A stretch of DNA of 64,000 nucleotides. Source: a virus. Within the stretch, counting starts at the first letter, position 1. Each line of letters starts with the position of its first letter. A program made the translations under genes and the position numbers. Positions 41,507-53,950 of this stretch are shown here, in pieces. The stretch is taken from IMG/VR virus record IMGVR_UViG_3300030329_003696, positions 62,001-126,000 of that record; one strand, written 5' to 3'. The notes under the pieces are model-generated. The model was not told the DNA's origin. It saw nothing but the letters and a program-made list of their open reading frames with translations, and made no database searches.

Positions 41507-41536
41507 CCGGGGGGGCCCGGCCGCAGCCGGTGTCAA
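41507..41536 (-). repeat. GC-rich palindromic element 1
   Basis: TTGACA, 10 bases, then the 14-base core CCGGGCCCCCCCGG (minus strand). No gene within 140 bases. Part of a ten-copy family. Confidence 0.8.
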
Positions 41537-41625
41537 CCCCTATTCTTCAAAAAAACAGGAAATAGACCAGAAAAAAATCACCATCAAAATTAGCTGTATC
41601 ATACCCTACCATCCCACTGAAGTTA

Positions 41626-41660
41626 TAAAAACCCCAAGCGGCCAAATGGCCGCAAGGGGT
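41626..41660 (-). terminator. Perfect terminator behind DUF932 gene
   Basis: ACCCC, TTGCGGCCA/TGGCCGCTT, GGGGT: near-perfect stem with a TTTTT tail. Confidence 0.9.
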
Positions 41661-41682
41661 AACACAACAGAAAGGGGTAAGG

Positions 41683-42600
41683 TTAGGCCGCAAGTTCCAA
41701 AGCGAGCTTCTCAGCCGCCTTGACCTCTTGCGAGTTGGATGCACGCAGGATTCGATCAAAGTCACCCTTGAAACCCTCCTTCGCCTGTGCGTCGTGTTGG
41801 ACGTAGCCCTGAATAGCGTTGTATGCTTCCCAAGCGGAAACCACATTGGTCATCGCTGGACGACCTGTCAGGTTACGCTCACGATTAAGACGCTTCCAGA
41901 TTGCCTCAGTACGATTTTGGTGAGTAGTCACCGCACGCACTCGCTCGCCACGGGCTGCACGATCCAGTTGATCCTGATCAGGACGACCATAGATAGAATC
42001 GAGAAACTCAGTCATGCGAACCTCAGTAGATTCGAGACGGTCAATAACATCGGTCAGGGTAGACCAGCTATTTTTGAGGGTCTCAAATGTTGAGATCAAT
42101 TCGTCCATGTTGGCACGCAATCCGGAAGTGTGACGAATGGAAACGGTTGTACCGTTCACCATACGCATCATCGCCAGATTACTACACGCATCACGGAAAT
42201 AACCCATAGTGGCGGTAAACGCTTTACCGTCATAACCAGCGTTAATCATCACGCGAGGCCATACGTTATCCGTATCACGATCCTTGAAAATCGAACGACG
42301 ATCTTCAGCGGTTGGTTGAATGGACACATAGTGACCACTACGGAAGTGAGTATTGCAAGCAATCTCACCATCGAACGCCTCACCAGCGGCATCGACCAAC
42401 GCACAAACGTCATCAGTCGTATGGGGAACGTAGCGAGGGGAAACGGACTTCACGCCCTTGAGATAACCCGTATCAGAACGGAACAAGCCGTACTGGTCAG
42501 TCGGCATATGATCCGGGCCAAACAGTGGAAACTTGTCAACGGTGAAATCGAAAGCGGAACGAACGGAAGCTGAAACGTCAGCAGATTGAATGTTAGTCAT
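41683..42600 (-). CDS. DUF932-like phage/plasmid protein, 305 aa
   Basis: Matches the general plan of DUF932 / phage-plasmid-like TIGR03299 proteins: an N-terminal domain with SPRYVPHTTDDVCALVDAAG, a middle with GTTVSIRHTSG, and a helical C-terminus. Function unknown in the family. Single-gene unit with strong promoter and terminator. Confidence 0.66.
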   Translation of the reverse strand: MTNIQSADVSASVRSAFDFTVDKFPLFGPDHMPTDQYGLFRSDTGYLKGVKSVSPRYVPHTTDDVCALVDAAGEAFDGEIACNTHFRSGHYVSIQPTAEDRRSIFKDRDTDNVWPRVMINAGYDGKAFTATMGYFRDACSNLAMMRMVNGTTVSIRHTSGLRANMDELISTFETLKNSWSTLTDVIDRLESTEVRMTEFLDSIYGRPDQDQLDRAARGERVRAVTTHQNRTEAIWKRLNRERNLTGRPAMTNVVSAWEAYNAIQGYVQHDAQAKEGFKGDFDRILRASNSQEVKAAEKLALELAA

Positions 42601-42642
42601 AGTAAAACCTTTCTGAAATGTGTGAAACTAACTTACTCTCTC

Positions 42643-42670
42643 ATTATAATATATATCGGCTAGATGTCAA
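42643..42670 (-). promoter_or_regulatory. Sigma-70 promoter with CCGATA spacer
   Basis: TTGACA, 16-base spacer TCTAGCCGATATATAT, TATAAT; near consensus. Confidence 0.86.
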
Positions 42671-42738
42671 TGGGGACTTGAGCTTTTTTTGGATTTTTTT
42701 TATTCCGGACTTTTTTGGCTTTTTTAGCATTTTCCCTC

Positions 42739-42781
42739 TTGACAAACGACCCGGCCGGGGGGGCCCGGATTCCAAGGTCAA
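42739..42781 (-). repeat. GC-rich palindromic element 2
   Basis: Core CCGGGCCCCCCCGG (42768-42755) with TTGACC on one side and an inverted TTGACA box on the other (42739-42744), so the unit is a near-symmetrical inverted repeat. Confidence 0.78.
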
Positions 42782-42791
42782 CCGGCGACCC

Positions 42792-42896
42792 TCATGTTGG
42801 CGATGAGAGATCTATTTGAATCCTGTTACCCCGTCGCCCTCTTCTCATCTTACAGTTACCGTTGTTAGCGTAAGACGGCGGGCAGGCAACCAACAT
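42792..42896 (-). CDS. Doubtful 34-aa frame between two TTGACCTT repeats
   Basis: MLVACPPSYANNGNCKMRRG and a basic end; no ribosome site. The 42601-42927 stretch otherwise holds a promoter, a GC-rich element and two GCCGGTTGACCTT repeats (42771-42785, 42899-42911). Could equally be untranslated RNA. Confidence 0.28.
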   Translation of the reverse strand: MLVACPPSYANNGNCKMRRGRRGNRIQIDLSSPT

Positions 42897-42927
42897 AAAG
42901 GTCAACCGGCATCTCTTGAAAGGAATA

Positions 42928-43158
42928 CTAATCCTCGTGAGGCATTGTACAATATACTTCGTAAGGTGTAGCGGCATAGGTCATCTGTGAATGGTCATCT
43001 TCCCACCATCCTACAAACCCCTTCACCCCACCACCAGAAGCAACTTCAAAGCAAGCGATGCGGTCGTTCGTTTGCTCCGCCAGTTTGCAAGTGCCTTCTT
43101 CACGAATAATTTTTCTTACAAAGTTGTTAAATCTAACAACGCTTCCTACTTTGTCCAC
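42928..43158 (-). CDS. Hypothetical protein, 76 aa
   Basis: A GTG start at 43158 right after the upstream stop. Mixed alpha/beta with GVKGFVGWWEDD. Unrecognised; probably translated by re-initiation. Confidence 0.5.
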   Translation of the reverse strand: MDKVGSVVRFNNFVRKIIREEGTCKLAEQTNDRIACFEVASGGGVKGFVGWWEDDHSQMTYAATPYEVYCTMPHED

Positions 43159-43159
43159 G

Positions 43160-43531
43160 TTACCACCAGCTACTATACACAACGGTATAGCCTTTCTTAA
43201 TTGCCGCACGAGCCTCACGGATGAACTCACGGTCTTGCTCTGCGTAATATTCTTCAGAGTTTTCCCCGAAGAAGAAACCTACTGTCTCTGGTAGGGCGTT
43301 TTCGTCCAGAGCTTCTTCCATGCTGTCCAAGTCCCCAAGTGTCAATTCGACATCGACACAATTAAACTCACCATCTCCACCCTTTTCACGGTAGAGTTCT
43401 TCCATCCACCCCTGCAAACTAGGGTGCTTTCGCCAGTAGGCCAGTTCCATACTGTCCTCGTAGTAAGTGTAGCCATCTTCGTCCTTCTTAGCTTCGCCAC
43501 GTCGTGCGGATGCGTATTGGTCAAGTCCCAT
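43160..43531 (-). CDS. Conserved phage-type hypothetical protein, 123 aa
   Basis: Begins MGLDQYASARRGEAKKDE, the start of a small family recurrent in phages (MGLDxYA). Acidic, with AYWRKHPSLQGWMEELY. ATG at 43531 behind AAAGGT. Function unknown. Confidence 0.66.
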   Translation of the reverse strand: MGLDQYASARRGEAKKDEDGYTYYEDSMELAYWRKHPSLQGWMEELYREKGGDGEFNCVDVELTLGDLDSMEEALDENALPETVGFFFGENSEEYYAEQDREFIREARAAIKKGYTVVYSSWW

Positions 43532-43570
43532 AATTTTACCTTTCAAAAAGTAGTGTTGGTTATACTGTAT

Positions 43571-43598
43571 ATTCTAACATACAATTATTGTATGTCAA
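43571..43598 (-). promoter_or_regulatory. Sigma-70 promoter with palindromic operator-like spacer
   Basis: TTGACA, 16-base spacer, TAGAAT. The spacer is filled by the perfect palindrome CATACAATTATTGTATG (43578-43594), which would block RNA polymerase if bound by a dimer. Confidence 0.75.
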
Positions 43599-43603
43599 GT
43601 GGT

Positions 43604-44071
43604 CTAATGAAAAAATGGTGGTTTATGACTGAAGGCCATTACTGCATTGTCGAGGATTGACAAGTCAGCATAGTCAGCGTTTTCTATTGGGCTTGCGTCG
43701 TACTGCTTGATGAACGTGTCACAGGTGTATGGGTTGTAGTAAACTTTTTCCCATCGTGTTTCGCCGTTGTCGATCTGCTCATCAGTGAGATGACCGTCAA
43801 CTTTTTGGTCGGTCGTACGAGTATCAACCACATAGCCCTCAATAAACGCATGTACGTTTTTCTTCTGTTCATCCCTGACTCTCCTTTGTCCTGCCTTGGA
43901 CACAATGAATTGACAACTTCTCAACGTAACATTTTCTGCATGACAGCGAACGATGCCGCCTTGCTTAACGCTGTAGCAATCTCGATGCAGGTTGCGATAG
44001 ACTCGCACCTTCTTGGTTGGGTCGATATGCTCCGCAATCTGGAAGCTTTTTTGTGTTCGTGGTTTCTTCAT
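43604..44071 (-). CDS. Hypothetical protein, 155 aa
   Basis: N-terminal beta domain (RVYRNLHRDCYSVKQGGIVR) and acidic C-terminus. Reads like a conserved phage accessory protein; function not recognised. Own promoter at 44.1 kb. Confidence 0.58.
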   Translation of the reverse strand: MKKPRTQKSFQIAEHIDPTKKVRVYRNLHRDCYSVKQGGIVRCHAENVTLRSCQFIVSKAGQRRVRDEQKKNVHAFIEGYVVDTRTTDQKVDGHLTDEQIDNGETRWEKVYYNPYTCDTFIKQYDASPIENADYADLSILDNAVMAFSHKPPFFH

Positions 44072-44097
44072 AACTTATCCTTTCGTGTTACCCTTCC

Positions 44098-44125
44098 ATT
44101 ATATTATATATATCGTCATAGTCAA
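44098..44125 (-). promoter_or_regulatory. Sigma-70 promoter with GACGATA spacer
   Basis: TTGACT, 16-base spacer ATGACGATATATATAA, TATAAT (a second TATAAT 5 bases nearer). Confidence 0.82.
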
Positions 44126-44195
44126 GGGGTCGGCATTAACTTTTTCTGGCTTTTTTCTAATCTTTTTTTACTGAGAACCAGTCTCAACAACCAAA

Positions 44196-44227
44196 CCGGG
44201 GCCGCCCGGATTTGCCCGCCGCGTCAA
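44196..44227 (-). repeat. GC-rich palindromic element 3
   Basis: TTGACG, 12 bases, core CCGGGCGGCCCCGG (44209-44196). Confidence 0.75.
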
Positions 44228-44368
44228 TCCGGCTGGAATGAGTAAGACACCGCCACCGGCTGAGACTACCCCAACCGGCAGCGGCGTATATAAAAAAAAT
44301 AAAAAATAGCGGTTACCTTTTATCCTCACCACCTATACCGCAAGGTCAGTGGTGCGGGTCATAGCGTC
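44228..44368 (-). other. Intergenic hairpins, no gene
   Basis: Holds a 10-bp hairpin CCGCTGCCGG/CCGGTGGCGG (44280-44246) that pairs fully only as minus-strand RNA (two G-U), and a CACCAC/GTGGTG hairpin (44355-44328) followed by a long T-rich tract. Probably the 3' end of the 44.4 kb unit. Confidence 0.5.
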
Positions 44369-44647
44369 CTACGACTTTAGGAACGGTGCGACTAGGGAAC
44401 CAACGAAAGGAATTTTAATTCCCCAATTCTGACGCTCTTTATAGAACGCCTTTACACCGTCACGGGTTTGCACCGTGTCAAGGTCTCGCGACCGTTTGAA
44501 TTCAGGATCGTATTTACGATACGCTCCCGTGATTGTCTCCCAACTAAGCGGGTGCTTGTTGGTGTTGCGTCGTTCCTTAAGAACTCCCCAACGAAACTTA
44601 GAACCTTCAACCGGTTGCTTGTAACTGAACATAACTAGACTTTTCAT
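44369..44647 (-). CDS. Hypothetical protein, 92 aa
   Basis: Basic; WGVLKERRNTNKHPLSWETI and AYRKYDPEFKRSRDL suggest a small conserved phage protein. ATG at 44647 behind AAGGAT. Unrecognised. Confidence 0.52.
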   Translation of the reverse strand: MKSLVMFSYKQPVEGSKFRWGVLKERRNTNKHPLSWETITGAYRKYDPEFKRSRDLDTVQTRDGVKAFYKERQNWGIKIPFVGSLVAPFLKS

Positions 44648-44723
44648 AATCAATATCCTTTTGTGTAGTGGTCTGAAATACCATGAGCTGCTGAAAAAAA
44701 TAAAAGTAACAATACAAGTTGAA

Positions 44724-45506
44724 TCACACTGTTGCCACCTTTCTGCTATAGCTATGCCGCACCTTGTCCCGTTTCAGCACCTTTAAGGCATCGGCGGCTT
44801 CGCTACCTTTGGGCTGTGTTCCGTGTAGCATCAATGCAAATGATTGATTGCGTAGGCTTGGCTTTGCTGCGTGTGTGTCGTCGTGGTCGATAGCTAGTCC
44901 GAGATCGTGAGCCTCTTGTTCACTGTATACCACTTTGGCGAATCGCATATCGTACTCGTCGATACGCCAATCATCACGACCGCCATATGATGCGGTCAAA
45001 ACGAAATTGTGTAGAATTGGAAACTCGTTGATAGAGTGCCAGAACCTGAGCGACTTGGTATAAGCGTAGAATAGCTTGTCGGGGTTTGCCACTGCTACAG
45101 AATACCACGCTTCCATATATTGCTGATTGAAGAAATCGCCTGCAACGTGGATGCGAACGATACCGGCATTGGTGGGTAATGAGTTATTGATTAAGTCAAT
45201 CATCTCGCCGGTTGATAGTTTACGCAACGAATCAAAATTGTGTTTGCGTAGATTGTACACGTTGGTGTACTGTACTTCCTGAGAAGCTGAGAAGCAACGG
45301 AACTGCGTTTTGTGTCCGTCTTGTATTTTGCGTTTGCCGTTTGGCTGAACTACGGCTTTGGATAGGCACGACTCTGCGAACGGGCATGAGTAGCCACTGA
45401 GAAGGTCAAGGGAATAAACCTTGCGTTTATCTGTCAGATACTCTGACAACTCGTCGTCGTTTTTGAGTGCTTCGATTTTAGCGTTTGCGTTTGAGAACTT
45501 TAACAT
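44724..45506 (-). CDS. Gp88-like conserved phage protein, 260 aa
   Basis: A cysteine cluster (YSCPFAESCLSKA...FRCFSASQE, about 39-77) and HVAGDFFNQQYMEAWYSVA (about 119-137) recall the Gp88-type family of mycobacteriophages and others, perhaps an iron-sulfur or zinc protein. The activity is unknown. Own promoter at 45.5 kb. Confidence 0.55.
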   Translation of the reverse strand: MLKFSNANAKIEALKNDDELSEYLTDKRKVYSLDLLSGYSCPFAESCLSKAVVQPNGKRKIQDGHKTQFRCFSASQEVQYTNVYNLRKHNFDSLRKLSTGEMIDLINNSLPTNAGIVRIHVAGDFFNQQYMEAWYSVAVANPDKLFYAYTKSLRFWHSINEFPILHNFVLTASYGGRDDWRIDEYDMRFAKVVYSEQEAHDLGLAIDHDDTHAAKPSLRNQSFALMLHGTQPKGSEAADALKVLKRDKVRHSYSRKVATV

Positions 45507-45539
45507 CTGTTTACCTTTCGTTGTGTTGCTTACAGTCTT

Positions 45540-45567
45540 ATTCTACTATATATTATCGGAATGTCAA
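45540..45567 (-). promoter_or_regulatory. Sigma-70 promoter with CCGATA spacer
   Basis: TTGACA, 16-base spacer TTCCGATAATATATAG, TAGAAT. Confidence 0.8.
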
Positions 45568-45599
45568 GGGGTCAAACTTGAATAATTCCGGTTATTTTT

Positions 45600-45754
45600 T
45601 GGCGACGGGAACGGGGACTCGAACCCCGCACTCGTAGGCACCAACTCGATAAGGCCTGAGATAGCCCCGTCGATTCCCTCCCAATCCGTCGATTAGGCCA
45701 GTTGTCGAACTATCATGTCGTCGGTGTCTCATCCTACGAGACCATTTTCCCGCC
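45600..45754 (-). ncRNA. tRNA-like RNA with encoded CCA end, 155 nt
   Basis: Begins about 8 bases after the start site predicted from the 45.8 kb promoter. Ends form an 8-bp acceptor stem (GGCGGGAA/TTCCCGTC) with G plus encoded CCA. A canonical T-arm (CGGGG TTCGAGT CCCCG) is joined directly to it. AATGGTCTCG after the acceptor resembles the tmRNA D-analogue. CTCGTAGG pairs with CCTACGAG and ACCGAC with GTTGGT, a long P2-like helix; a D-arm GTCTC/GAGAC is the competing fold. The interior has hairpins AGTT-CGAC-AACT and CCTAATC-GACG-GATTGGG. A 54-codon frame crosses it without a ribosome site. Not a normal tRNA: there is no anticodon arm. Confidence 0.72.
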
Positions 45755-45768
45755 ATGTTGTTTACTCT

Positions 45769-45796
45769 ATTATATATTATATCGGCTATTTGTCAA
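45769..45796 (-). promoter_or_regulatory. Sigma-70 promoter of the tRNA-like RNA
   Basis: TTGACA, 16-base spacer AATAGCCGATATAATA, TATAAT. No gene follows other than the 155-nt RNA. Confidence 0.85.
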
Positions 45797-45878
45797 GGGG
45801 AACTTTAGCATTTTTCCAAAGTTTTTTTTCATTGTTTTTTTCCTGTTTTTTGCCGATTGGACTTGACTTTTGACCCGG

Positions 45879-45908
45879 CCGGGGGGGCCCGGCTCGCCGG
45901 TTTGTCAA
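45879..45908 (-). repeat. GC-rich palindromic element 4
   Basis: TTGACA, 10 bases AACCGGCGAG, core CCGGGCCCCCCCGG (45892-45879), then CCGGG. Confidence 0.82.
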
Positions 45909-45928
45909 CCCCTATTTTTATTTTTTTC

Positions 45929-45976
45929 GTGGGGAAAGAGAAGCCGCCTGAACGTCACAGGCGGCATTCTCCCCAC
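45929..45976 (-). terminator. Long hairpin behind the 46 kb operon
   Basis: GTGGGG...GCCGCCTG pairs with CAGGCGGC...CCCCAC (about 18 bp with a bulge). It is followed by an A tract rather than T, so it may protect or process the 3' end rather than act as a simple terminator. Confidence 0.6.
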
Positions 45977-45996
45977 AACACGAAAGGTCGGCGGTT

Positions 45997-46200
45997 TTAG
46001 AGTGACGCCACGCACTTTTTCAGTGAGAACGACTTGTGCAAGCCGTTGTCCTCTCGGACGGTAATCCCACGGCCATTTGGCCCGGTGAAGCTCGCAACCT
46101 TTACGCCGGTTACTGAGCGGAGGATATTCTTACTCCCGTTTTTGGGATACAGGAAAGAAACTTTGCGTTCGTTACGCTTGTGATAAAGATCGTTGTTCAT
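45997..46200 (-). CDS. Hypothetical protein, 67 aa
   Basis: MNNDLYHKRNERKVSFLYPK, basic, with GVKVASFTGPNGRGI. ATG at 46200 behind GAAAGG. Unrecognised. Confidence 0.52.
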   Translation of the reverse strand: MNNDLYHKRNERKVSFLYPKNGSKNILRSVTGVKVASFTGPNGRGITVREDNGLHKSFSLKKCVASL

Positions 46201-46571: not shown

Positions 46572-46697
46572 AAGACTTCTCCTTTCAAAAAAAAATGTGT
46601 TGCGGATGCAGTGGCTCTTAACCCTAACTCACTAGCTTGATATTATTCGCCTCAAGACAGGCAGGTGAGTTCCAGTTCCGTGCTGTGTTATACTACC

Positions 46698-47176: not shown

Positions 47177-47220
47177 GGGGTAAACTTTAATTTATTTTGA
47201 CTTTTTTCGCTGACTCGCTG

Positions 47221-47491
47221 GCTACCACATTTACACTTTATCCGTTAGGATAAGATGAGACACATCACGATGGCAGGCCTATCCATCTGCACCGTAGTCT
47301 GCTGCGTCCTTTTTTAAGTTCACAAAGGAACCGGATTTGACTTACGCCTCGATGCACCCCTAAATCGTCTTACCGATCCTGTCCTTACGTAATGGCTACA
47401 AAGGCCTTAAAGGGGTTGTGATGTTGTCTCGTTGTAAGATGCCCCTTTCGGGGAACCAAGTCCAGCGGCGTAGTTCCAACTGGGTTGTAGC
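47221..47491 (-). ncRNA. Promoter-driven structured RNA, about 271 nt
   Basis: The promoter at 47533-47506 predicts a start about 8 bases before this RNA, and there is no reading frame of note. Ends pair (GCTAC with GTAGC). Inside are a CCCC-GAAA-GGGG hairpin, TTATCC-TAAC-GGATAA, GTTC/GAAC, and AACCCAG...CTGG...GGTT. Compact and GC-richer than its surroundings. No known RNA class recognised. Confidence 0.62.
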
Positions 47492-47505
47492 TAACTTACT
47501 CCTCC

Positions 47506-47533
47506 ATTATAATATACATCGACCAAATGTCAA
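47506..47533 (-). promoter_or_regulatory. Sigma-70 promoter of the 271-nt RNA
   Basis: TTGACA, 16-base spacer TTTGGTCGATGTATAT, TATAAT. Confidence 0.84.
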
Positions 47534-47599: not shown

Positions 47600-47644
47600 T
47601 TGACAAAAACCCGGCCGGGCGGCCCCGGCTCGCCGGTTTGTCAA
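47600..47644 (-). repeat. GC-rich palindromic element 5
   Basis: TTGACA, AACCGGCGAG, core CCGGGGCCGCCCGG (47628-47615), CCGGG, T5, and an inverted TTGACA box on the far side (47600-47605). It follows the stop of the 47.7 kb gene and could end its transcript. Confidence 0.84.
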
Positions 47645-47652: not shown

Positions 47653-47865
47653 CTAGCAAAAAGCACATGCGTCGAGCGTGGGCGTGTACTCTCCTCCTTG
47701 CTTGCCGCACTTGGGGCAGATGTCGCTACCGTCTAGGACGGTGGGGCAGGTGTTGGATTGCTCCTCTAGTTCCATCTGCTCCTCGCACCACATCCAAAAC
47801 TCAAGTGAGCCATCACTTTCTGGCTCTTGGTAATCTCTTGGATCGCTCATAACTCCACTCATCAT
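47653..47865 (-). CDS. Small zinc-binding protein, 70 aa
   Basis: C-terminal CPKCGKQGGEYTPTLDACAF carries CxxC and a later CxxC; the front is acidic. A start at 47850 (MSDPRDYQE) is also open. Unrecognised. Confidence 0.52.
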   Translation of the reverse strand: MMSGVMSDPRDYQEPESDGSLEFWMWCEEQMELEEQSNTCPTVLDGSDICPKCGKQGGEYTPTLDACAFC

Positions 47866-47941
47866 AAAGACCTAACAAAACAGGAAATGTAACAGCGGCG
47901 ACAATCGCCCAATTCCAAAATACAACCATCTCACTACTCAT
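47813..47941 (-). CDS. Membrane peptide, 42 aa
   Basis: MSSEMVVFWNWAIVAAVTFP with a basic tail (KRLPRARK). Start overlaps the upstream stop. One membrane helix. Confidence 0.52.
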   Translation of the reverse strand: MSSEMVVFWNWAIVAAVTFPVLLGLYDEWSYERSKRLPRARK

Positions 47942-48323
47942 AATCGCAGTACGCCTCCCATGCGTCGTAATCGTTGTAAGTATCCTCGAACGGCTCGCCG
48001 TTGTACGGATCGTCATATAGTTCATTGTCGCCAACGCAGGCGAAATCCTCATCGTCGTAGAGGTTATCGGATCGCATACCTTCTTCCCACGCGATGGCTT
48101 CCTCCGTCCACTCGTACTCGTCGGTGGTGTCGAGTTCACCGATAGAATCATCGGTGTCATCTTCCCACCCTTCGGGTGCGGACAGTTGGAAATCCTCCGG
48201 CTCCGGCAGAGGCTCTGATGCCTCTTGTGAGTCGAGCCACTCGTGGTACTCAGCCCAATCAGCCGCAGTCGGCTCGTAAGAGGTGATTTCTTCGCAGTGG
48301 ATTTGTGTGTCGAACTTGGTCAT
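47934..48323 (-). CDS. Extremely acidic protein, 129 aa
   Basis: About 40 D/E against only two K and one R; tyrosine- and tryptophan-rich. No known domain. The charge recalls DNA-mimic proteins that block restriction or nucleoid proteins (Ocr, Arn, Gam types), but no sequence match is claimed. Own strong promoter. Confidence 0.6.
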   Translation of the reverse strand: MTKFDTQIHCEEITSYEPTAADWAEYHEWLDSQEASEPLPEPEDFQLSAPEGWEDDTDDSIGELDTTDEYEWTEEAIAWEEGMRSDNLYDDEDFACVGDNELYDDPYNGEPFEDTYNDYDAWEAYCDYE

Positions 48324-48362
48324 GTTGAAAACCTTTCAAAGAGTGATGTGTTGTATGCCTCT

Positions 48363-48390
48363 ATTATAACTAATATCGGCCAGTTGTCAA
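48363..48390 (-). promoter_or_regulatory. Sigma-70 promoter with GCCGATA spacer
   Basis: TTGACA, 16-base spacer ACTGGCCGATATTAGT, TATAAT. Confidence 0.85.
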
Positions 48391-48485
48391 GGGGTTCTTG
48401 AGAAAAAAAAGAAACTTTTTGGTAATTGAGTGATTGCGACAGAGCTTACCAAACTCCACACCCCGAAGGGGACGGTCAAGCGGTT

Positions 48486-48698
48486 CTACTCCTCGTCGGA
48501 GCCGAACAACTCATTCCAGCACTTGTCACAAGTGCCAGAGATGAGAAGCTCGCGTTGATCCGCTGAAAGCTCGGGGAGAGCATCTTGGATCAACTTGCCG
48601 CCTTGCCAAGCAACGAATCCCTCGATGTTAACCGTGAGATCCGTCACCTCTTTACAAAGGCGACAGGGAACCGCAACGACTGATGTCATTGCTAACAT
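48486..48698 (-). CDS. Small zinc-finger protein, 70 aa, probably leaderless
   Basis: CRLC (12-15) and CDKC (56-59) form a split zinc site. The ATG lies 6 bases after TATAAT, as in the 47.1 kb gene; an internal ATG (MTSVVAV) has no ribosome site either. Behind the stop comes TTGACC plus a CCCC-TTCG-GGGG hairpin. Confidence 0.52.
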   Translation of the reverse strand: MLAMTSVVAVPCRLCKEVTDLTVNIEGFVAWQGGKLIQDALPELSADQRELLISGTCDKCWNELFGSDEE

Positions 48699-48704
48699 GA
48701 TTTA

Positions 48705-48733
48705 ATTATATCATAAAGAGTTGATCTTGTCAA
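48705..48733 (-). promoter_or_regulatory. Sigma-70 promoter
   Basis: TTGACA, 17-base spacer, TATAAT, directly abutting the 48.7 kb start codon. Confidence 0.82.
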
Positions 48734-48749
48734 GGGGTATTTGGAAATT

Positions 48750-48818
48750 TTACGATAAAACTTCTGCACCCAGAAGACCAACGAGACACGCACAAACCAG
48801 TAAAATAAAAAACGTCAT
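48750..48818 (-). CDS. Membrane peptide, 22 aa
   Basis: MTFFILLVCACLVGLLGAEV then LS, one membrane helix, behind AAAGGAGG. The -10 of its promoter touches this ribosome site. Confidence 0.5.
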   Translation of the reverse strand: MTFFILLVCACLVGLLGAEVLS

Positions 48819-48831
48819 ATCAACTTCCTCC

Positions 48832-48860
48832 TTTATACTATATATATCGGCAGGAGTCAA
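48832..48860 (-). promoter_or_regulatory. Sigma-70 promoter with GCCGATA spacer
   Basis: TTGACT, 17-base spacer CCTGCCGATATATATAG, TATAAA. Confidence 0.78.
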
Positions 48861-48903
48861 TAGCAAACTTAACAAAAAACCAAAAAAAAGCAAAAAAACC
48901 CGG

Positions 48904-48933
48904 CCGGGCGGCCCCGGATCGTCCCGGTGTCAA
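48904..48933 (-). repeat. GC-rich palindromic element 6
   Basis: TTGACA, CCGGGACGAT, core CCGGGGCCGCCCGG (48917-48904), CCGGG, then T7. The 48934-49030 stretch beside it has no gene. Confidence 0.84.
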
Positions 48934-49030
48934 CCCCTTTGGTTTGGATAATACATAGATGGCGGGTACGGCTGGAGGCGTCTCGTCTCACCCTCACACG
49001 CTTTACCGACGAGTTGACCTTACCATCTAT

Positions 49031-49198
49031 TTATAGTGAGACATCACGAACACCGCGAAGGATACCCAACCGGCGGAACATGCGAACCACAAAATTGACT
49101 TTAGCCTGTCGTTCATTTTCCAATCTCCTTTTTTCAATATTTTCTAATCGTTGACAATAACGTGCCAACTCATTGGCGTGTGTCCTTCTCATTCTCAT
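49031..49198 (-). CDS. Small basic protein, 55 aa
   Basis: MRMRRTHANELARYCQRLEN, helical, Arg-rich. Start overlaps the upstream stop (ATGA). Unrecognised. Confidence 0.52.
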   Translation of the reverse strand: MRMRRTHANELARYCQRLENIEKRRLENERQAKVNFVVRMFRRLGILRGVRDVSL

Positions 49199-49278
49199 AG
49201 TATCAACCCCGATATAATACAACCGGCAATAAATGCAATCGTGCAAAATATAATTGCTTGCTTCTGTTCTTCGTTCAT
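49195..49278 (-). CDS. Membrane peptide, 27 aa
   Basis: MNEEQKQAIIFCTIAFIAGC, one membrane helix. Start overlaps the upstream stop, end overlaps the downstream start: a coupled three-gene chain. Confidence 0.55.
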   Translation of the reverse strand: MNEEQKQAIIFCTIAFIAGCIISGLIL

Positions 49279-49574
49279 AGTTCTGTACTCCATTCGTGAT
49301 ATTGTTCGGTACTCATAAAACTCATATCTTCACCGTGAGCAAGTACCCACGGAAAACCAAATTCATCTTCTACCCATAGTTCAAGCAAATCTAAATTGCC
49401 AGCGGCTACAGCTTCGTCAAGTACCTCAGTAGGTACAGCGACCTTCATAGAACTAATCGCTCCACCTTCAGGGGTTTCTCCAAACCACTCGCACTGTTGC
49501 CAGTTCGACGGTTTCAATATCCTGCAAAGTGTAACCATACAAACGCCCATCGGGGGCAAAATTCCATCATTCAT
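49275..49574 (-). CDS. Hypothetical protein, 99 aa
   Basis: Soluble, acidic, with WFGETPEGGAISSMKVAVP. Overlaps its neighbours by single bases. Unrecognised. Confidence 0.54.
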   Translation of the reverse strand: MNDGILPPMGVCMVTLCRILKPSNWQQCEWFGETPEGGAISSMKVAVPTEVLDEAVAAGNLDLLELWVEDEFGFPWVLAHGEDMSFMSTEQYHEWSTEL

Positions 49575-50008
49575 TATTCGGTCTCCAAGTCATCCCATTC
49601 AATCAGTCCACCGTTAACCATACCACGAACAAAAGCGTATTCGTTTTTGGCAAGCTGAATTTCATCGGCTTCGTTTTCGCCATAGTCAAAACCACTTTCC
49701 ATATCGACGAAATCCGTACCGCCTTTATGCGTGGTGTAAATTGCTTTTTCCTCGAATTGCTTTCTCAGCTTTTCGATGTTGCGAGCTTTTGCCGCTTTCG
49801 CTTTTTGGTGTGCGGTTTCGGTTTCTTCTTCTTCCGCAATCAATTCATTCAAGCGTGCAAGCGTACGACCACCACGAATCTTGTCGTGATACTTTTCAGG
49901 CAGCAAATCGTTAGGAACTTCGATGCACTCAGCGAACACGCCTTCAACGTGTGCATTGAGTTCGTCGATGTTGTTGAATCCGCAGTAAGGTTTAGTTGAG
50001 TCTAGCAT
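49574..50008 (-). CDS. Hypothetical coiled-coil protein, 144 aa
   Basis: A long charged helix in the middle (EEEETETAHQKAKAAKARNI). GAAAGGAAAA before the ATG. First gene of a four-gene unit. Unrecognised. Confidence 0.56.
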   Translation of the reverse strand: MLDSTKPYCGFNNIDELNAHVEGVFAECIEVPNDLLPEKYHDKIRGGRTLARLNELIAEEEETETAHQKAKAAKARNIEKLRKQFEEKAIYTTHKGGTDFVDMESGFDYGENEADEIQLAKNEYAFVRGMVNGGLIEWDDLETE

Positions 50009-50041
50009 AGTTTTCCTTTCGAGTGTGTTTTGTATATCTAA

Positions 50042-50070
50042 ATTTTACTTTATGAAATTGTATTTGTCAA
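50042..50070 (-). promoter_or_regulatory. Sigma-70 promoter, no CCGAT motif
   Basis: TTGACA, 17-base spacer, TAAAAT. Confidence 0.7.
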
Positions 50071-50222
50071 GGGGTTTCAGAAACTTTTTCCGACTTTTTT
50101 GCTTCTTTGTCTATGACAACCATAGCGTCAATAATAGCGTTTGTGGCTGCCCTTGATGCTCCGGCTTCCTTAGCCTTGTGCCATACTTCCCACAACAGTG
50201 ATTTTAGTTCTTTCGTTTTCAT
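50067..50222 (-). CDS. Small helical protein, 51 aa
   Basis: MKTKELKSLLWEVWHKAKEA and an AATNAIIDAMVVIDKEAK helix. GAAAGGAAAG before the ATG. Unrecognised. Confidence 0.55.
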   Translation of the reverse strand: MKTKELKSLLWEVWHKAKEAGASRAATNAIIDAMVVIDKEAKKSEKVSETP

Positions 50223-50247
50223 TTTCTTTCCTTTCGTTATGTTTATC

Positions 50248-50276
50248 ATTATACCATAATTATCGGCACTTGTCAA
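50248..50276 (-). promoter_or_regulatory. Sigma-70 promoter with GCCGATA spacer
   Basis: TTGACA, 17-base spacer AGTGCCGATAATTATGG, TATAAT. Confidence 0.85.
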
Positions 50277-50288
50277 TAGCAATCTTAA

Positions 50289-50405
50289 CTAATTCTCATA
50301 ATAATTTAATATTTTTGTGACAACCCAGCCGACTGGAATCAACAACGCCGGAACAATTACGAACATCATCAATTCTTCGTTTTCAATCATCCACTCAAAA
50401 CTCAT
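50289..50405 (-). CDS. Membrane peptide, 38 aa
   Basis: MSFEWMIENEELMMFVIVPA then LLIPVGWVV, one membrane helix. AAAGGAAAG before the ATG. Confidence 0.56.
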   Translation of the reverse strand: MSFEWMIENEELMMFVIVPALLIPVGWVVTKILNYYEN

Positions 50406-50431
50406 AGCTTTCCTTTCGTGTTAACTTCTTA

Positions 50432-50460
50432 AGTCTATCATATATATCGGCCACTGTCAA
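50432..50460 (-). promoter_or_regulatory. Sigma-70-like promoter, weak -10
   Basis: TTGACA, GTGGCCGATA, and TAGACT after a 17-base spacer. Confidence 0.6.
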
Positions 50461-50504
50461 GGGCAATCTTTAGAAAATCTCAAAAAAAAGGCAAAAAATC
50501 CCGG

Positions 50505-50534
50505 CCGGGGCCGCCCGGATCGACTCACTGTCAA
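50505..50534 (-). repeat. GC-rich palindromic element 7
   Basis: TTGACA, GTGAGTCGAT, core CCGGGCGGCCCCGG (50518-50505), CCGGG, T6. The promoter only 45 bases away begins TTGACAGTGGCCGATA, sharing most of its first 16 bases. Confidence 0.85.
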
Positions 50535-50557
50535 TAGGGAAAGTTTGAAAAAGACAA
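50528..50557. repeat. 30-bp exact repeat, copy 1
   Basis: Identical to 51375-51404. Contains the element's TGTCAA box and a GGGAAA arm that pairs with TTTCCC downstream, a likely terminator for the 50.6 kb gene. Confidence 0.85.
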
Positions 50558-50571
50558 GTTTTTCCCAGTTT

Positions 50572-50784
50572 TTAGAACCCGCCTAATCCGTGCATGTCGT
50601 GCAACACATCCCAAGCCGATTGGGAAGCGTTCCATTCATCGACAGTCATTCCGAATTGTTCATGAATTGGGATCTCTTTGACTTCCGATTCTTTCCAGCT
50701 ATTGCCGTTTGCAATGCTTGGCTTGTCAGAGCCACCGATTAACAAATACTGTTTTCCCTGTTCGGGCTTATCTTTTTTAGTCAT
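50572..50784 (-). CDS. Hypothetical protein, 70 aa
   Basis: Contains IHEQFGMTVDEWNASQSAWD. GAAAGG before the ATG. Unrecognised. Confidence 0.54.
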   Translation of the reverse strand: MTKKDKPEQGKQYLLIGGSDKPSIANGNSWKESEVKEIPIHEQFGMTVDEWNASQSAWDVLHDMHGLGGF

Positions 50785-50840
50785 AATCTTTCCTTTCGTT
50801 GATTTCTTATATTATTATTATCGTCTATGGGCGTGACACG

Positions 50841-51053
50841 TTAGGTCATCCGAACGTATTTTCCTACAAGTTTATGCCACTTTTTCATGACATATTCGTA
50901 TTTGCCCTGACACTCAGGATTGCCTATTGCAGCTCCGGTTGAACCTACCCAACTACAGATTGCCCACTTGTTTGTATGATTGCATCGCACTAGGTAACGC
51001 ATGCCGGTTGGCGTATCTTTGGTCATTCTGATTGTATAAGGTTGGTAGTTCAT
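50841..51053 (-). CDS. Hypothetical protein, 70 aa
   Basis: Basic, beta-rich (MNYQPYTIRMTKDTPTGMRY), three cysteines. GAAAGGAAAG before the ATG at 51053. Behind a diverged TTGGCA promoter. Unrecognised. Confidence 0.55.
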   Translation of the reverse strand: MNYQPYTIRMTKDTPTGMRYLVRCNHTNKWAICSWVGSTGAAIGNPECQGKYEYVMKKWHKLVGKYVRMT

Positions 51054-51079
51054 AATCTTTCCTTTCGATTGCTTTCTAT

Positions 51080-51107
51080 AGTATATATAGTGCATTACCC
51101 GTGCCAA
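51080..51107 (-). promoter_or_regulatory. Diverged promoter TTGGCA/TATACT
   Basis: 16-base spacer. The -35 is part of a TTTGGCACGGGT box repeated elsewhere in this region. Confidence 0.6.
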
Positions 51108-51191
51108 ACGTGCCGATTGAGCCAATAAAATAAAATAATCTTTTATTAGCCTGTAAAACAAGGGGTTTCAGAACATAAATAAATTTTTGTG

Positions 51192-51214
51192 TTTTGGCAT
51201 GGGTTTTGGCATGG
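51192..51214 (+). repeat. Tandem TTTTGGCATGG repeats
   Basis: Two copies 12 bases apart. Further copies: 41483-41493 (+), 51333-51343 (minus) and 51098-51109 (minus). Confidence 0.75.
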
Positions 51215-51223
51215 CTTGAAAAG

Positions 51224-51283
51224 TGTTATCAAATTGATACAACCTGTTATCAAATTGTCCTAATGCTACTATACAAGTATAAT
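51224..51283 (+). promoter_or_regulatory. Rightward promoter with two operator-like repeats
   Basis: TTGTCC, 17-base spacer, TATAAT (51255-51283) on the plus strand, against the direction of all nearby genes. The direct repeat TGTTATCAAATTG (51224-51236 and 51245-51257) overlaps and precedes the -35. Confidence 0.65.
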
Positions 51284-51351
51284 ACGAGGTAACCAAAAAT
51301 CAAAATGATGACACATTAACATAGAGCAAATACCGTGCCAAAAATTGCCGA

Positions 51352-51381
51352 CCGGGCGGCCCCGGAGCTGGTGGCTGTCAA
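51352..51381 (-). repeat. GC-rich palindromic element 8
   Basis: TTGACA, GCCACCAGCT, core CCGGGGCCGCCCGG (51365-51352). Confidence 0.82.
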
Positions 51382-51404
51382 TAGGGAAAGTTTGAAAAAG
51401 ACAA
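51375..51404. repeat. 30-bp exact repeat, copy 2
   Basis: Identical to 50528-50557; forms a bidirectional terminator hairpin here. Confidence 0.85.
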
Positions 51405-51420
51405 ACTTTTTCCTAGTTTT

Positions 51421-51945
51421 TTATAGCTCATCTGGGAAGTCTTCCATGTCAAACAGCTCAACGTGTTTGTGTACCAAGTCCAGAGGGACGGGAAGATTGT
51501 ACCCTTTGCGGCTTTCCTTTCGTTTAGAAGCCCACTGATCCCAGAACCTTTCGCTAGTTGTCCATTTCAATATGATTCCCTCGGTCGGATGAACAAAAGC
51601 GAAAACAATATACTCAAACGATTCCGGACATATTCCCATAAAGAAAAACCGTTTATTAGTCTGATTGCTATTGGTCACCAAAGCCGATTTTACCTCAACT
51701 CTCACAGGGCGGTCTGTAAGCTCAACCGTAATATCCCACTCGCCCGTATGAACGGTTTGAGTTGCTTCAAAGCCCATATTTTTAATGTGTGAGAAGACTA
51801 CGCTTTCAATGCGTGTTCCTCGGTTTGTGGAAGTCATCTTTGACGCAGCGAAAGAGGATGGGCAATGATCCCCATAAAGCGACTTGTTTCCTTCTTGTCC
51901 TTCTGCGTCGATTAACTGATCAAGTGTGATTTCGTTGTAGCTCAT
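51421..51945 (-). CDS. PD-(D/E)XK nuclease-like protein, 174 aa
   Basis: The core motif is visible: GTRIESVVFSHIKNMGF (E on the first helix), GEWDITVELTD (D) and RVEVKSAL (E-x-K). This is the layout of a restriction-endonuclease-like fold. Target unknown. Own promoter at 52.0 kb, convergent terminator at its end. Confidence 0.7.
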   Translation of the reverse strand: MSYNEITLDQLIDAEGQEGNKSLYGDHCPSSFAASKMTSTNRGTRIESVVFSHIKNMGFEATQTVHTGEWDITVELTDRPVRVEVKSALVTNSNQTNKRFFFMGICPESFEYIVFAFVHPTEGIILKWTTSERFWDQWASKRKESRKGYNLPVPLDLVHKHVELFDMEDFPDEL

Positions 51946-51988
51946 TTTTTTACCTTTGCTTGTGTTGTGCTTAATTGCTTATGTCTTA

Positions 51989-52016
51989 ATTATAATATAC
52001 TTATCGGATTTGTCAA
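51989..52016 (-). promoter_or_regulatory. Sigma-70 promoter with CCGATA spacer
   Basis: TTGACA, 16-base spacer AATCCGATAAGTATAT, TATAAT. Confidence 0.85.
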
Positions 52017-52046
52017 GGGGAATCTTTAATAATTCCCAAAGTTTTT

Positions 52047-52355
52047 TTATCCTGCTACCCATGCGTGCAACGATGCTTCATCCCATTTACGGGGAAAGCC
52101 CGAAGCATCGCAATCGCTAGGGCAACCGCACTGAATCCAAACCTTGGCCGAATTCAGAAGCTCGCTCAATGGAGCGTATGGCGAATAATTGAAAACCATA
52201 GCGTTGCCGATTGGATCAACGACGTAAGCAATCAGCTTGGTAACCATTACGTTACCATCTGGATCGAGTTCGCTAATCTTATCAACCCATAGGGTATGAT
52301 CTTCAAGGCCGTAGTTTTCAGAATTAAAGATATTTTTAACAGCTTCAGTTTTCAT
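52047..52355 (-). CDS. Hypothetical protein, 102 aa
   Basis: Soluble, acidic, with IQCGCPSDCDASG (three Cys) near the end. AAAGGAAAG upstream. Unrecognised. Confidence 0.55.
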   Translation of the reverse strand: MKTEAVKNIFNSENYGLEDHTLWVDKISELDPDGNVMVTKLIAYVVDPIGNAMVFNYSPYAPLSELLNSAKVWIQCGCPSDCDASGFPRKWDEASLHAWVAG

Positions 52356-52390
52356 TTTAACTTTCCTTTGTGTTGTTTTGTTATGTTCTT

Positions 52391-52419
52391 ATTATACTAT
52401 AACTATCGGCAAAAGTCAA
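52391..52419 (-). promoter_or_regulatory. Sigma-70 promoter with GCCGATA spacer
   Basis: TTGACT, 17-base spacer TTTGCCGATAGTTATAG, TATAAT. Confidence 0.84.
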
Positions 52420-52432
52420 GGGGTATCTTGAA

Positions 52433-52540
52433 CTATTTTTCAAAAATATTGAAATAAATAATGTGTGCCCCAAGCGTTGCGATTGATACAATAATGCCGG
52501 TTGAAACGATAATCTTCGAGAGAATTTCTAATTGTGCCAT
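52433..52540 (-). CDS. Membrane peptide, 35 aa (paralogue of 53.7 kb peptide)
   Basis: MAQLEILSKIIVSTGIIVSI then HIIYFNIFEK. The end HIIYFNI is shared with the peptide at 53699-53797. ATG at 52540 is 7 bases after AAAGGAA. One membrane helix. Confidence 0.6.
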   Translation of the reverse strand: MAQLEILSKIIVSTGIIVSIATLGAHIIYFNIFEK

Positions 52541-52578
52541 TTTCATTTTCCTTTGTGTTGTGTTTTTGTTATGCTTCT

Positions 52579-52606
52579 ATTATACATAGATCGGCAGAAA
52601 TGTCAA
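52579..52606 (-). promoter_or_regulatory. Sigma-70 promoter with GCCGATC spacer
   Basis: TTGACA, 16-base spacer TTTCTGCCGATCTATG, TATAAT. Confidence 0.84.
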
Positions 52607-52646
52607 TAGGCTTTAGCTAAAAATCCAGAAAAAAAGCAAAGTTTTT

Positions 52647-52676
52647 CCGGGGCCGCCCGGATCGCCCAGGTGTCAA
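52647..52676 (-). repeat. GC-rich palindromic element 9
   Basis: TTGACA, CCTGGGCGAT, core CCGGGCGGCCCCGG (52660-52647), then AAAAAC and a T-rich tract. Confidence 0.83.
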
Positions 52677-52732
52677 CAGTAAATCTGGTCTTTTTGTCGA
52701 AGTACTGTGACGCCCCTAGGCGATTGGTTAGG

Positions 52733-53014
52733 CTAAGACGGCAAGCATCCGTCAACTATACCACCGTGAGCGTCAAGCTCTGCCTGTACTACCTCAATCG
52801 GCACGAAACCATAAACGGTCTCGGTGTAGTCGCTAGTACCGCACAGCTCTGCATAGTTGCGTAGCTCTGCTGTCTTTGGTGTAGTGGTAGGAAATCCACA
52901 CTCTACAGTAAGCAGGTTGCCTGCTGTGTTACGTTGGCAGTAGCTACCATCGTGAGCCTGTACGCTGATATTAAAGCCATCGTTGCAAGTGATTCTAGGA
53001 TTGTGATTGTACAT
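52733..53014 (-). CDS. Hypothetical protein, 93 aa
   Basis: Begins MYNHNPRITCNDGFNISVQA; five cysteines; beta-rich. Similar in style to small conserved phage early proteins. Unrecognised. Confidence 0.56.
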   Translation of the reverse strand: MYNHNPRITCNDGFNISVQAHDGSYCQRNTAGNLLTVECGFPTTTPKTAELRNYAELCGTSDYTETVYGFVPIEVVQAELDAHGGIVDGCLPS

Positions 53015-53130
53015 AAGATAAACCTTTTCTAGTATAGTGTAGTTGTGTTGGCCATTGTTATTCTCTTAGGCTTGAGTGGTTATTGTTATAGTGTTAAACC
53101 TTCACTCAGGAATAGCTACACGCTACCCAT

Positions 53131-53364
53131 CTACTCGTTGGCGGTTCCGTACTTCTCGAAGTATCGACGCATAGCGTCCATCTTGGATTGCGGTACTTCC
53201 GTAACGCTGATAGTCTCAACGTCATTATGATAATGATTGTAACGGAAGCGGGTTTCACCGTGTTCGTTGGTGAATAGCGAATCCTGCCCAACAGTGCAGA
53301 ATGTAGTTTCTCGACCTGTTACTGGGTGTATAGCCAGAACGTCAAAGTTTTTTTTGTTAGTCAT
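53131..53364 (-). CDS. Hypothetical protein, 77 aa
   Basis: MTNKKNFDVLAIHPVTGRET, beta front and helical end (KMDAMRRYFEKYG). GAAAGG before the ATG. Unrecognised. Confidence 0.56.
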   Translation of the reverse strand: MTNKKNFDVLAIHPVTGRETTFCTVGQDSLFTNEHGETRFRYNHYHNDVETISVTEVPQSKMDAMRRYFEKYGTANE

Positions 53365-53405
53365 ATTGTTACCTTTCGTGAATGACTGTTGTGTGTTATG
53401 CTTTA

Positions 53406-53434
53406 AGTATACCATACTTATCGGCGTTTGTCAA
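53406..53434 (-). promoter_or_regulatory. Sigma-70 promoter with GCCGATA spacer
   Basis: TTGACA, 17-base spacer AACGCCGATAAGTATGG, TATACT. Confidence 0.84.
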
Positions 53435-53443
53435 GTGGTTTCT

Positions 53444-53614
53444 TTAACTATTCATGATATTTTTTAGAATATCTTTTCTAGCCCAAAGCACTTCCAATTC
53501 GTTCATTATCTCAGTTTTCTTATAGCGTGAACGTGCGTTGGCGTGTTCGTTGACTTTCGCTTCAATTTGTCGGTTAGTCGTGAACAGTTTCAGTTTAGCT
53601 TCGTTGCGAGTCAT
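53444..53614 (-). CDS. Small basic helical protein, 56 aa
   Basis: MTRNEAKLKLFTTNRQIEAK and NELEVLWARKDILKN: a helical hairpin. GAAAGG before the ATG. Unrecognised. Confidence 0.55.
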   Translation of the reverse strand: MTRNEAKLKLFTTNRQIEAKVNEHANARSRYKKTEIMNELEVLWARKDILKNIMNS

Positions 53615-53656
53615 GTTGTGTTCCTTTCGAGAACGTTGTTTAATTGTTATGTCTTA

Positions 53657-53685
53657 AGTATATTATATATATCGGCAAAAGTCAA
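53657..53685 (-). promoter_or_regulatory. Sigma-70 promoter with GCCGATA spacer
   Basis: TTGACT, 17-base spacer TTTGCCGATATATATAA, TATACT. Confidence 0.83.
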
Positions 53686-53698
53686 TAGCAATCTTTAA

Positions 53699-53797
53699 TT
53701 ATTTTCCAAGAATATTAAAATAAATTATGTGTCCGATTAAACCTGCGAAAGCTGTTACTGTGCCGATTGTTACGATTGTTGTTGCGATGATTGTCAT
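53699..53797 (-). CDS. Membrane peptide, 32 aa (paralogue of 52.4 kb peptide)
   Basis: MTIIATTIVTIGTVTAFAGL then IGHIIYFNILGK. Shares the HIIYFNI end and the Gly/Ile helix with 52433-52540. Single-gene unit. Confidence 0.6.
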   Translation of the reverse strand: MTIIATTIVTIGTVTAFAGLIGHIIYFNILGK

Positions 53798-53830
53798 AGT
53801 TAACCTTTCGTTGTTGTTTGTTATGCTTTA

Positions 53831-53859
53831 AGTATATCATAAAGATCGGCACTTGTCAA
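53831..53859 (-). promoter_or_regulatory. Sigma-70 promoter with GCCGATC spacer
   Basis: TTGACA, 17-base spacer AGTGCCGATCTTTATGA, TATACT. Confidence 0.83.
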
Positions 53860-53903
53860 TAGTAAACTGAAATAATTCTGAAAAAAAACAGAAAAAATCT
53901 GAT

Positions 53904-53950
53904 CCGGGCCCCCCCAGCTTATGTGGTGGGTGTTTTATCTTCGATGTCAA
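53904..53950 (-). repeat. GC-rich palindromic element 10 (diverged)
   Basis: Core CTGGGGGGGCCCGG (53917-53904); the TTGACA box (53950-53945) is 27 bases away instead of 10. Outer copy of the family. Confidence 0.65.

What the first reader, a model, noticed from the sequence alone, without database searches (positions are those of the whole stretch)
41507..53950. Ten-copy GC-rich palindromic element built on a promoter-like -35 box
In this AT-rich region ten intergenic copies share: TTGACA (or near), a gap of exactly 10 bases in seven copies, then a 14-base core of CCGGG-NNNN-CCCGG, often followed by CCGGG and T-rich DNA. The four loop bases are GCCG, CGGC, GGGG or CCCC, so cores occur in both orientations. 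Three copies carry CGAT just before the core, as the neighbouring real promoters do. At 50.5 kb the element (TTGACAGTGAGTCGAT then core) and the promoter beside it (TTGACAGTGGCCGATA) share most of their first 16 bases. It looks like a promoter whose -10 half has been replaced by a hairpin: a terminator, a polymerase trap, a mobile REP-like unit, or a protein-binding site.
Basis: seen in the sequence. Interest (0 to 1): 0.9.

Follow-up and report, generated by a model that had tools for sequence, protein, structure and literature searches.

The report
Phage operon-boundary elements near early promoters
Ten short GC-rich boxes in an uncultured phage sit between its small early operons; sister phages carry longer versions with paired protein-binding sites held at fixed helical distances from the next promoter, pointing to a widespread, apparently undescribed regulatory element.

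Summary
In detail: nine exact CCGGG-N4-CCCGG cores plus one near copy (0.3 expected by chance), all within 12.4 kb of a 166.8-kb uncultured phage record. TTGACA lies exactly 10 bases upstream in seven of them (chance about 1e-15). Each copy lies between the end of one block of small genes and the next block; eight of ten have a promoter 40-84 bp downstream. About half the copies look like intrinsic terminators.

Relatives change the picture. At the same gene ends, sister phages carry a longer element: two 27-bp inverted-repeat sites (GTAAGTCSTT-N7-AASGACTTAC) around a ~26-bp GC-rich linker, 52-54 bp apart. The distance from this element to the next promoter's -35 box falls on an 11-bp ladder (40, 51, 62, 73; p about 1e-11), and an independent set repeated the periodicity more weakly. 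The sites behave as DNA, not RNA, elements. The window's phage has lost them. My reading: a boundary cassette that ends one operon and regulates the next promoter from a fixed helix face; the window carries a stripped-down, more terminator-like form. The binding protein is unknown; nothing has been tested experimentally.

The parts
53904..53950 (-). Element 1: TTGACA (53945-53950), gap 27, core CTGGGGGGGCCCGG (53904-53917), then T-runs; next promoter -35 44 bp after the core
52647..52676 (-). Element 2: TTGACA-N10 (ends CGAT)-CCGGGCGGCCCCGG; T-run about 11 nt later; promoter 40 bp after the core
51352..51381 (-). Element 3: CCCTATTGACA-N10-CCGGGGCCGCCCGG; shares 82 bp at 77% with element 4; sigma54-like site just downstream
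50505..50534 (-). Element 4: TTGACA-N10 (ends CGAT)-CCGGGCGGCCCCGG-CCGGG-T-run; promoter 44 bp after the core
48904..48933 (-). Element 5: GGGGTTGACA-N10 (ends CGAT)-CCGGGGCCGCCCGG-CCGGG-T-run; promoter 43 bp after the core; same downstream half as the G002 element before g16, where a dyad replaces the left arm
47615..47644 (-). Element 6: AATAGGGGTTGACA-N10-CCGGGGCCGCCCGG-CCGGG-TTTTTGTCAA (outer arms TTGAC...GTCAA); promoter 81 bp after the core
45879..45908 (-). Element 7: AATAGGGGTTGACA-N10-CCGGGCCCCCCCGG-CCGGG...GTCAA; preceded by an ordinary terminator (45965-45943); promoter 82 bp after the core
44196..44227 (-). Element 8: TTGACG-N12-CCGGGCGGCCCCGG; promoter 70 bp after the core
42755..42781 (-). 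Element 9: TTGACC-N7-CCGGGCCCCCCCGG-CCGGG...GTCAA; the G004 orthologue keeps both flanks (TTGACCTTGGAA and GTTTGTCAA) but has a different core; promoter 84 bp after the core
41507..41536 (-). Element 10: AATAGGGGTTGACA-N10-CCGGGCCCCCCCGG; a sigma54-like site on the + strand reads into it
41485..41500 (+). sigma54-like -24/-12 site TTGGCATGGTATTTGC next to element 10
51326..51341 (-). sigma54-like -24/-12 site TTGGCACGGTATTTGC next to element 3
47506..47533 (-). Example of a downstream promoter (TTGACA...TATAAT) following an element; the others begin at 53859, 52606, 50460, about 48861, 45796, 44125 and 42670
47653..48893 (-). Block g16-g19, bounded by elements 5 and 6; in G002 and G004 it lies between g5 and g11 instead

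Best explanation
The ten copies are boundary cassettes between blocks of small early genes. Ancestrally (still seen in sister phages) the cassette carries two 27-bp inverted-repeat protein-binding sites around a ~26-bp GC-rich linker, in helical register with each other and with the -35 box of the next promoter. A dimeric regulator bound there would act on RNA polymerase at the next operon's promoter and, with the hard-to-melt GC linker, could also stop transcription arriving from the operon before. In the window's phage the dyads are gone: the left arm is a promoter-derived -35 segment (TTGACA, N10), the GC core remains, and the right arm is either a T-run, giving an intrinsic terminator (half the copies), or a GTCAA flank at roughly the ancestral promoter distance. 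Shown by sequence: the anatomy, the fixed spacings, absence of dyads here, turnover at orthologous sites. Inferred: protein binding, which form is ancestral, direction of regulation, and termination. The binding protein is unknown.
For: Orthologous gene ends carry the dyad form in sisters and the TTGACA form in the window and G004; G002 has both, including TTGACA-N10-core-dyad. 0 dyads in G000 against 6-23 in dyad-bearing relatives with several copies (random maximum 3.8, cut-off 16). Dyad-to-dyad spacing 52-54 in almost every double element of the relatives and in 123 of 179 close pairs in other loci. Half-sites vary without pairing: opposite-facing halves share a variant type in 2, 1, 2 and 0 of 48 elements, same-facing halves in 19 and 15, which is against an RNA hairpin. 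Dyad end to next -35 is quantised near 29/40/51/62/73, R=0.76 at period 11, n=44, p about 1e-11, with 20,000 jitter controls never reaching it; the independent set has R=0.42 at 10-10.5 bp, p about 5e-5. A T-run of six or more in eight follows the core in 10 of 18 elements without a right dyad against 0 of 48 with one. TTGAC of the element to TTGAC of the promoter is 108-112 bp in GTCAA-type and right-dyad-type copies of W (the window), G002 and L231.
Against: No DNA-binding protein was found: genes shared by G002, G007 and G015 but missing from G000 gave no candidate. The phasing is shown for the dyad-bearing relatives, not for the ten window copies, whose distances (40-44, 70, 81-84; n=8) are too few to test. 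Nineteen of 66 dyad elements have no clear promoter within 170 bp. The independent ladder is weaker and includes off-ladder values. A GC core alone could be explained as a terminator.
Confidence: 0.55

Rival explanations
1. Plain intrinsic terminators of tandem early operons; TTGACA is a chance or historical neighbour.
For: GC stem plus T-run in five of ten copies; the terminator scan flags three of them on the coding strand; copies sit at block ends just before promoters.
Against: TTGACA spacing far beyond chance; loops all G/C; fold stability equal to shuffles in eight of ten; an ordinary terminator already precedes the element at g24 and g31; 0 of 48 dyad-form elements have a T-run after the core; helical phasing to the next promoter in relatives.
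Confidence: 0.22
2. PeSL-type recombination cassettes: promoter plus stem-loop repeats kept mainly because homologous recombination between copies shuffles gene blocks.
For: Gene order of small genes is shuffled among relatives; block g16-g19, bounded by elements in the window, moved as a unit in G002 and G004; elements 3 and 4 share 82 bp at 77%.
Against: Enrichment of breakpoints at element junctions is not significant (27/58 against 26/102; permutation P 0.07-0.25). Fixed geometry and promoter phasing are not needed for recombination.
Confidence: 0.12
3. A promoter trap or decoy: polymerase holoenzyme binds TTGACA but cannot melt the GC core.
For: GGGGTTGACA matches true -35 regions; the core covers where the -10 box would lie.
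Against: Spacing is not conserved in G004 and most relatives lack the -35 arm; no direct evidence.
Confidence: 0.06
4. Site-specific recombination sites (res-like: two dyads about 53 bp apart).
For: Dyads with fixed arms and a free 7-bp centre, fixed 53-bp spacing, shuffled blocks.
Against: No tyrosine (PF00589) or serine (PF00239) recombinase in 12 records, with controls ringing; phasing to promoters is unexplained.
Confidence: 0.05

Closest known systems
PeSLs (promoter-early stem-loop cassettes) of T4-type phages (Arbiol 2010, Comeau 2014; known here from my own knowledge and from PMC4503421; the primary papers were not read)
   Same: Repeated composite of stem-loop and sigma70-like early promoter between small genes in a shuffled region; an rIIA relative is nearby.
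   Different: Here a -35 segment or protein-binding dyads flank the GC core, with fixed 53-bp dyad spacing and helical phasing to the next promoter; recombination at the elements is only suggestive.
Stoperators of cluster A mycobacteriophages (PMC9283540)
   Same: Many intergenic sites thought to stop elongation, oriented with transcription; a site related to the -35 region (own knowledge).
   Different: Stoperators are asymmetric 13-mers bound by a monomeric immunity repressor; here symmetric dyads plus GC linker, and no repressor found. The single TTGACAGCCACC match at 51370 does not recur.
Upstream activator sites of the class I (CRP-like) kind (own knowledge)
   Same: Dyad sites at distances from the promoter that repeat every helical turn.
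   Different: Paired dyads with a GC linker, repeated across a whole early region; protein and sign of regulation unknown.
REP/BIME elements (own knowledge)
   Same: Short intergenic palindromic repeats in many copies.
   Different: Related but altered elements occupy orthologous gene ends; no sign of empty sites.

Membership tests
PeSL cassette | Stem-loop next to a sigma70-like early promoter, repeated among small genes | tested here: met
   Eight of ten copies are followed by a TTGAC..CGAT promoter 40-84 bp from the core; region full of small ORFs
PeSL cassette | Mediates modular shuffling by recombination | tested here: inconclusive
   Block g16-g19 moved with element boundaries, but overall permutation P 0.07-0.25
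PeSL cassette | Stem-loop is an effective terminator | not testable with these tools
   Needs RNA data; sequence fits in about half the copies
PeSL cassette | Carrier is a T4-type phage | tested here: inconclusive
   rIIA-like protein is about 30% identical to T4-like phages, but terminase and helicase match other phages at about 24-33%
Mycobacteriophage stoperator | Asymmetric 13-bp site repeated over the genome | tested here: not met
   TTGACAGCCACC occurs once exactly, no excess; relatives have symmetric dyads
Mycobacteriophage stoperator | Phage immunity repressor | not tested
   No repressor noticed; no dedicated search was made
Intrinsic terminator | GC stem directly followed by a U-tract | tested here: inconclusive
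   Five of ten window copies; 0 of 48 dyad-form elements
Site-specific recombination site | Cognate recombinase encoded | tested here: not met
   PF00589 and PF00239 absent from 12 records, some of them fragments
REP/mobile repeat | Sites empty in relatives | tested here: not met
   Most orthologous gene ends compared carry a related element with a changed core or arms; where none was seen (g10 in G002) the neighbouring gene also differs
Class I-like upstream regulatory site | Position relative to the promoter repeats each helical turn | tested here: met
   Dyad-form relatives: R=0.76 at 11 bp, n=44; independent set R=0.42 at 10-10.5 bp; too few window copies to test
Class I-like upstream regulatory site | Bound activator that contacts polymerase | not testable with these tools
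   Protein not identified

The most novel reading that the evidence does not exclude
A large group of uncultured phages uses a previously undescribed regulatory element, two dyads 53 bp apart around a GC clamp and phase-locked to the next promoter, repeated ten or more times as a combined insulator and enhancer; the window's phage shows how it can decay into, or be exchanged for, promoter-derived terminators. Perfect inverted repeats are avoided between all opposite-facing half-sites, which would be a new design constraint.
Probability: 0.4. Interest if true: 0.75.

Novelty: new variant of a known kind. Interest (0 to 1): 0.62.

Why it matters
The strict spacing makes clear, testable predictions about an unknown regulator of early genes in uncultured phages, and the window-G002-G004 series shows how such switches are rebuilt from promoter halves, GC cores and terminators.

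Tried and rejected
RNA-hairpin reading of the dyads: rejected, halves pair less than shuffled ones (WC 671 against 701 +/- 10). Significant folding of the window elements: not found in eight of ten. Breakpoint enrichment at elements: suggestive only. Gene co-occurrence to find the regulator: no candidate. Recombinases: none. L5-like stoperators: single chance-like match. Literature search for the half-site sequences gave only unrelated papers in the part listed. No close cultured relative of the phage: nucleotide search empty, terminase and helicase hits at about 24-33% identity, rIIA about 30%. Chromosomal hits of the dyad pattern (perfect palindromes in Verrucomicrobiae, Planctomycetes, Treponema and others) mostly lack the GC linker and were not pursued; a few MAG contigs carry whole elements and look like phage contigs. 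Host not determined.
Full report
The window is positions 62001-126000 of a 166,833-bp virus record. CCGGG-N4-CCCGG occurs nine times exactly plus once with one change, against 0.3 expected, and the exact form occurs nowhere else in the record. Upstream on the coding (-) strand TTGACA lies exactly 10 bases before the core in seven copies; with the local frequency of TTGACA this has a chance of about 1e-15 even after allowing for 40 possible gaps. The loop contains only G and C in every copy. All ten lie between the last gene of one block and the first of the next; eight have a TTGACA-N-CGAT-TATAAT promoter 40-84 bp beyond the core. Genes are numbered g1 to g33 in transcription order (list).

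Is the TTGACA promoter-derived? GGGGTTGACA, the left arm of four copies, is also the -35 region of ordinary promoters in G006, G008, G019, G020, G021 and L231, and three copies keep CGAT, a mark of these promoters. The same TTGACA-N10-CCGGG arrangement recurs in G002 and G021. In G004 the orthologous elements keep TTGAC but at other distances and with other cores. So the promoter link is supported, while the exact gap of ten belongs to this core type rather than to the whole family.

Is it a terminator? Five of ten copies have at least six T in eight after the core and the terminator scan picks out 47629, 48917 and 44209. Folding energy does not exceed dinucleotide shuffles except weakly at 47615 and 45879. 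At g24 and g31 an ordinary terminator precedes the element, here and in most relatives compared. Termination is therefore plausible for part of the set but not the whole explanation.

Relatives. Loci found with the rIIA-like protein and larger stretches of their records show at the same gene ends a longer element: two dyads, each half-site about GNC[GC]TAA[GAC][TC]C[CG]TT with a 7-bp free centre, around a linker of mostly 25-26 bp and 83% G+C. Dyads number 6 in G002, 14 in G007, 17 in G015, 23 in G013 and G019, 12 in G020, 17 in G008, 3 in the short record G006, 1 in G004 and none in the window's genome. G002 is intermediate: dyad-core-T-run, and TTGACA-N10-core-dyad. Before g16 the window and G002 share the right half of the element and the promoter, while the left arm is TTGACA-N10 in one and TTGAC plus a dyad in the other. 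At the g30/g31 site the window and G004 share both flanks (TTGACCTTGGAA and GTTTGTCAA) but not the core.

The dyads act at the DNA level. The two halves of a dyad pair less well than shuffled halves; in 48 double elements all four opposite-facing pairs of half-sites avoid the same variant (2, 1, 2, 0), while same-facing pairs do not (19, 15). Spacing between dyads is 52-54 bp in nearly all double elements of the relatives and in 123 of 179 close pairs in other loci. Most telling, the distance from the dyad end to the next -35 box falls in steps of about 11 bp: 27-29, 37-43, 50-52, 62, 72-73 (n=44 between 20 and 110 bp, R=0.76, p about 1e-11; none of 20,000 jittered sets reached it). A separate set of 68 elements from 38 other loci shows the same periodicity less strongly (R=0.42 at 10-10.5 bp, p about 5e-5; peaks near 30, 40, 50 and 60). 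Some phages in these sets share ancestry, so the p-values are not exact. This points to a protein bound at the dyads acting on polymerase at the next promoter. It would act as an activator or by looping; the data do not say which.

Back to the window. A T-run follows the core in 10 of 18 elements lacking a right dyad and in 0 of 48 with one, so T-run and dyad are alternatives at the same place. Element TTGAC to promoter TTGAC is 111-112 bp in the window's GTCAA-type copies and 108-110 bp in G002 and L231 copies with a right dyad, but 68-74 bp in T-run copies of the window and G004. I read the window's elements as stripped descendants, or exchanges, of the dyad form; the direction of change is inferred from the wider spread of the dyad form, not from a tree. 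Whether the CCGGG palindrome itself is a new binding site cannot be tested with ten copies.

A further feature: a sigma54-type sequence TTGGCAYRNNNNTTGC occurs 13 times in 22 records, and by my inspection of positions 12 of these lie beside an element, usually reading into it against the main transcription; two are in the window.

Shuffling: gene order differs among relatives and block g16-g19, bounded by elements 5 and 6, sits elsewhere in G002 and G004. The general test of breakpoints against elements was not significant, so PeSL-like shuffling is possible but unproven.

Verdict: a confirmed observation; a partly right interpretation; best filed as a variant of composite promoter-terminator boundary cassettes, with an apparently undescribed dyad-based regulatory architecture in its relatives. 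The main gap is the unknown protein and the absence of any experiment.

Noticed in passing
window 33175-33369 (-): Permuted tmRNA (Rfam RF04321, 81.7 bits) encoded by the phage, beside four tRNA genes; ARAGORN gives tag GVENYAMAA.
   Followed up: no
window 41485-41500 (+), 51326-51341 (-); also G002, G004, G006, G008, G019, G020: sigma54-like -24/-12 sequences placed beside the elements, suggesting a host with RpoN or a similar site.
   Followed up: partly
window 50780-50845; G007, G002, G020: Another repeated motif, GACCTAACGTGTCAC, in promoter regions; possibly a second operator.
   Followed up: no
window 47220-47500, 45600-45760, 41290-41400, 48970-49040: Intergenic stretches after promoters or gene ends without clear ORFs, possibly small RNAs (some look conserved in G004/G002).
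   Followed up: no
L228, L273, L285, L289, L297, L302 (one Verrucomicrobiae chromosome) and other bacterial loci: Perfect GTAAGTCGTT-N7-AACGACTTAC palindromes in bacterial chromosomes without the GC linker, in several copies with similar flanks.
   Followed up: partly
window 41683-42600, 44724-45506, 28090-29322, 31209-32120: DUF932, GP88, membrane dipeptidase M19 and UvdE family genes in the phage.
   Followed up: no
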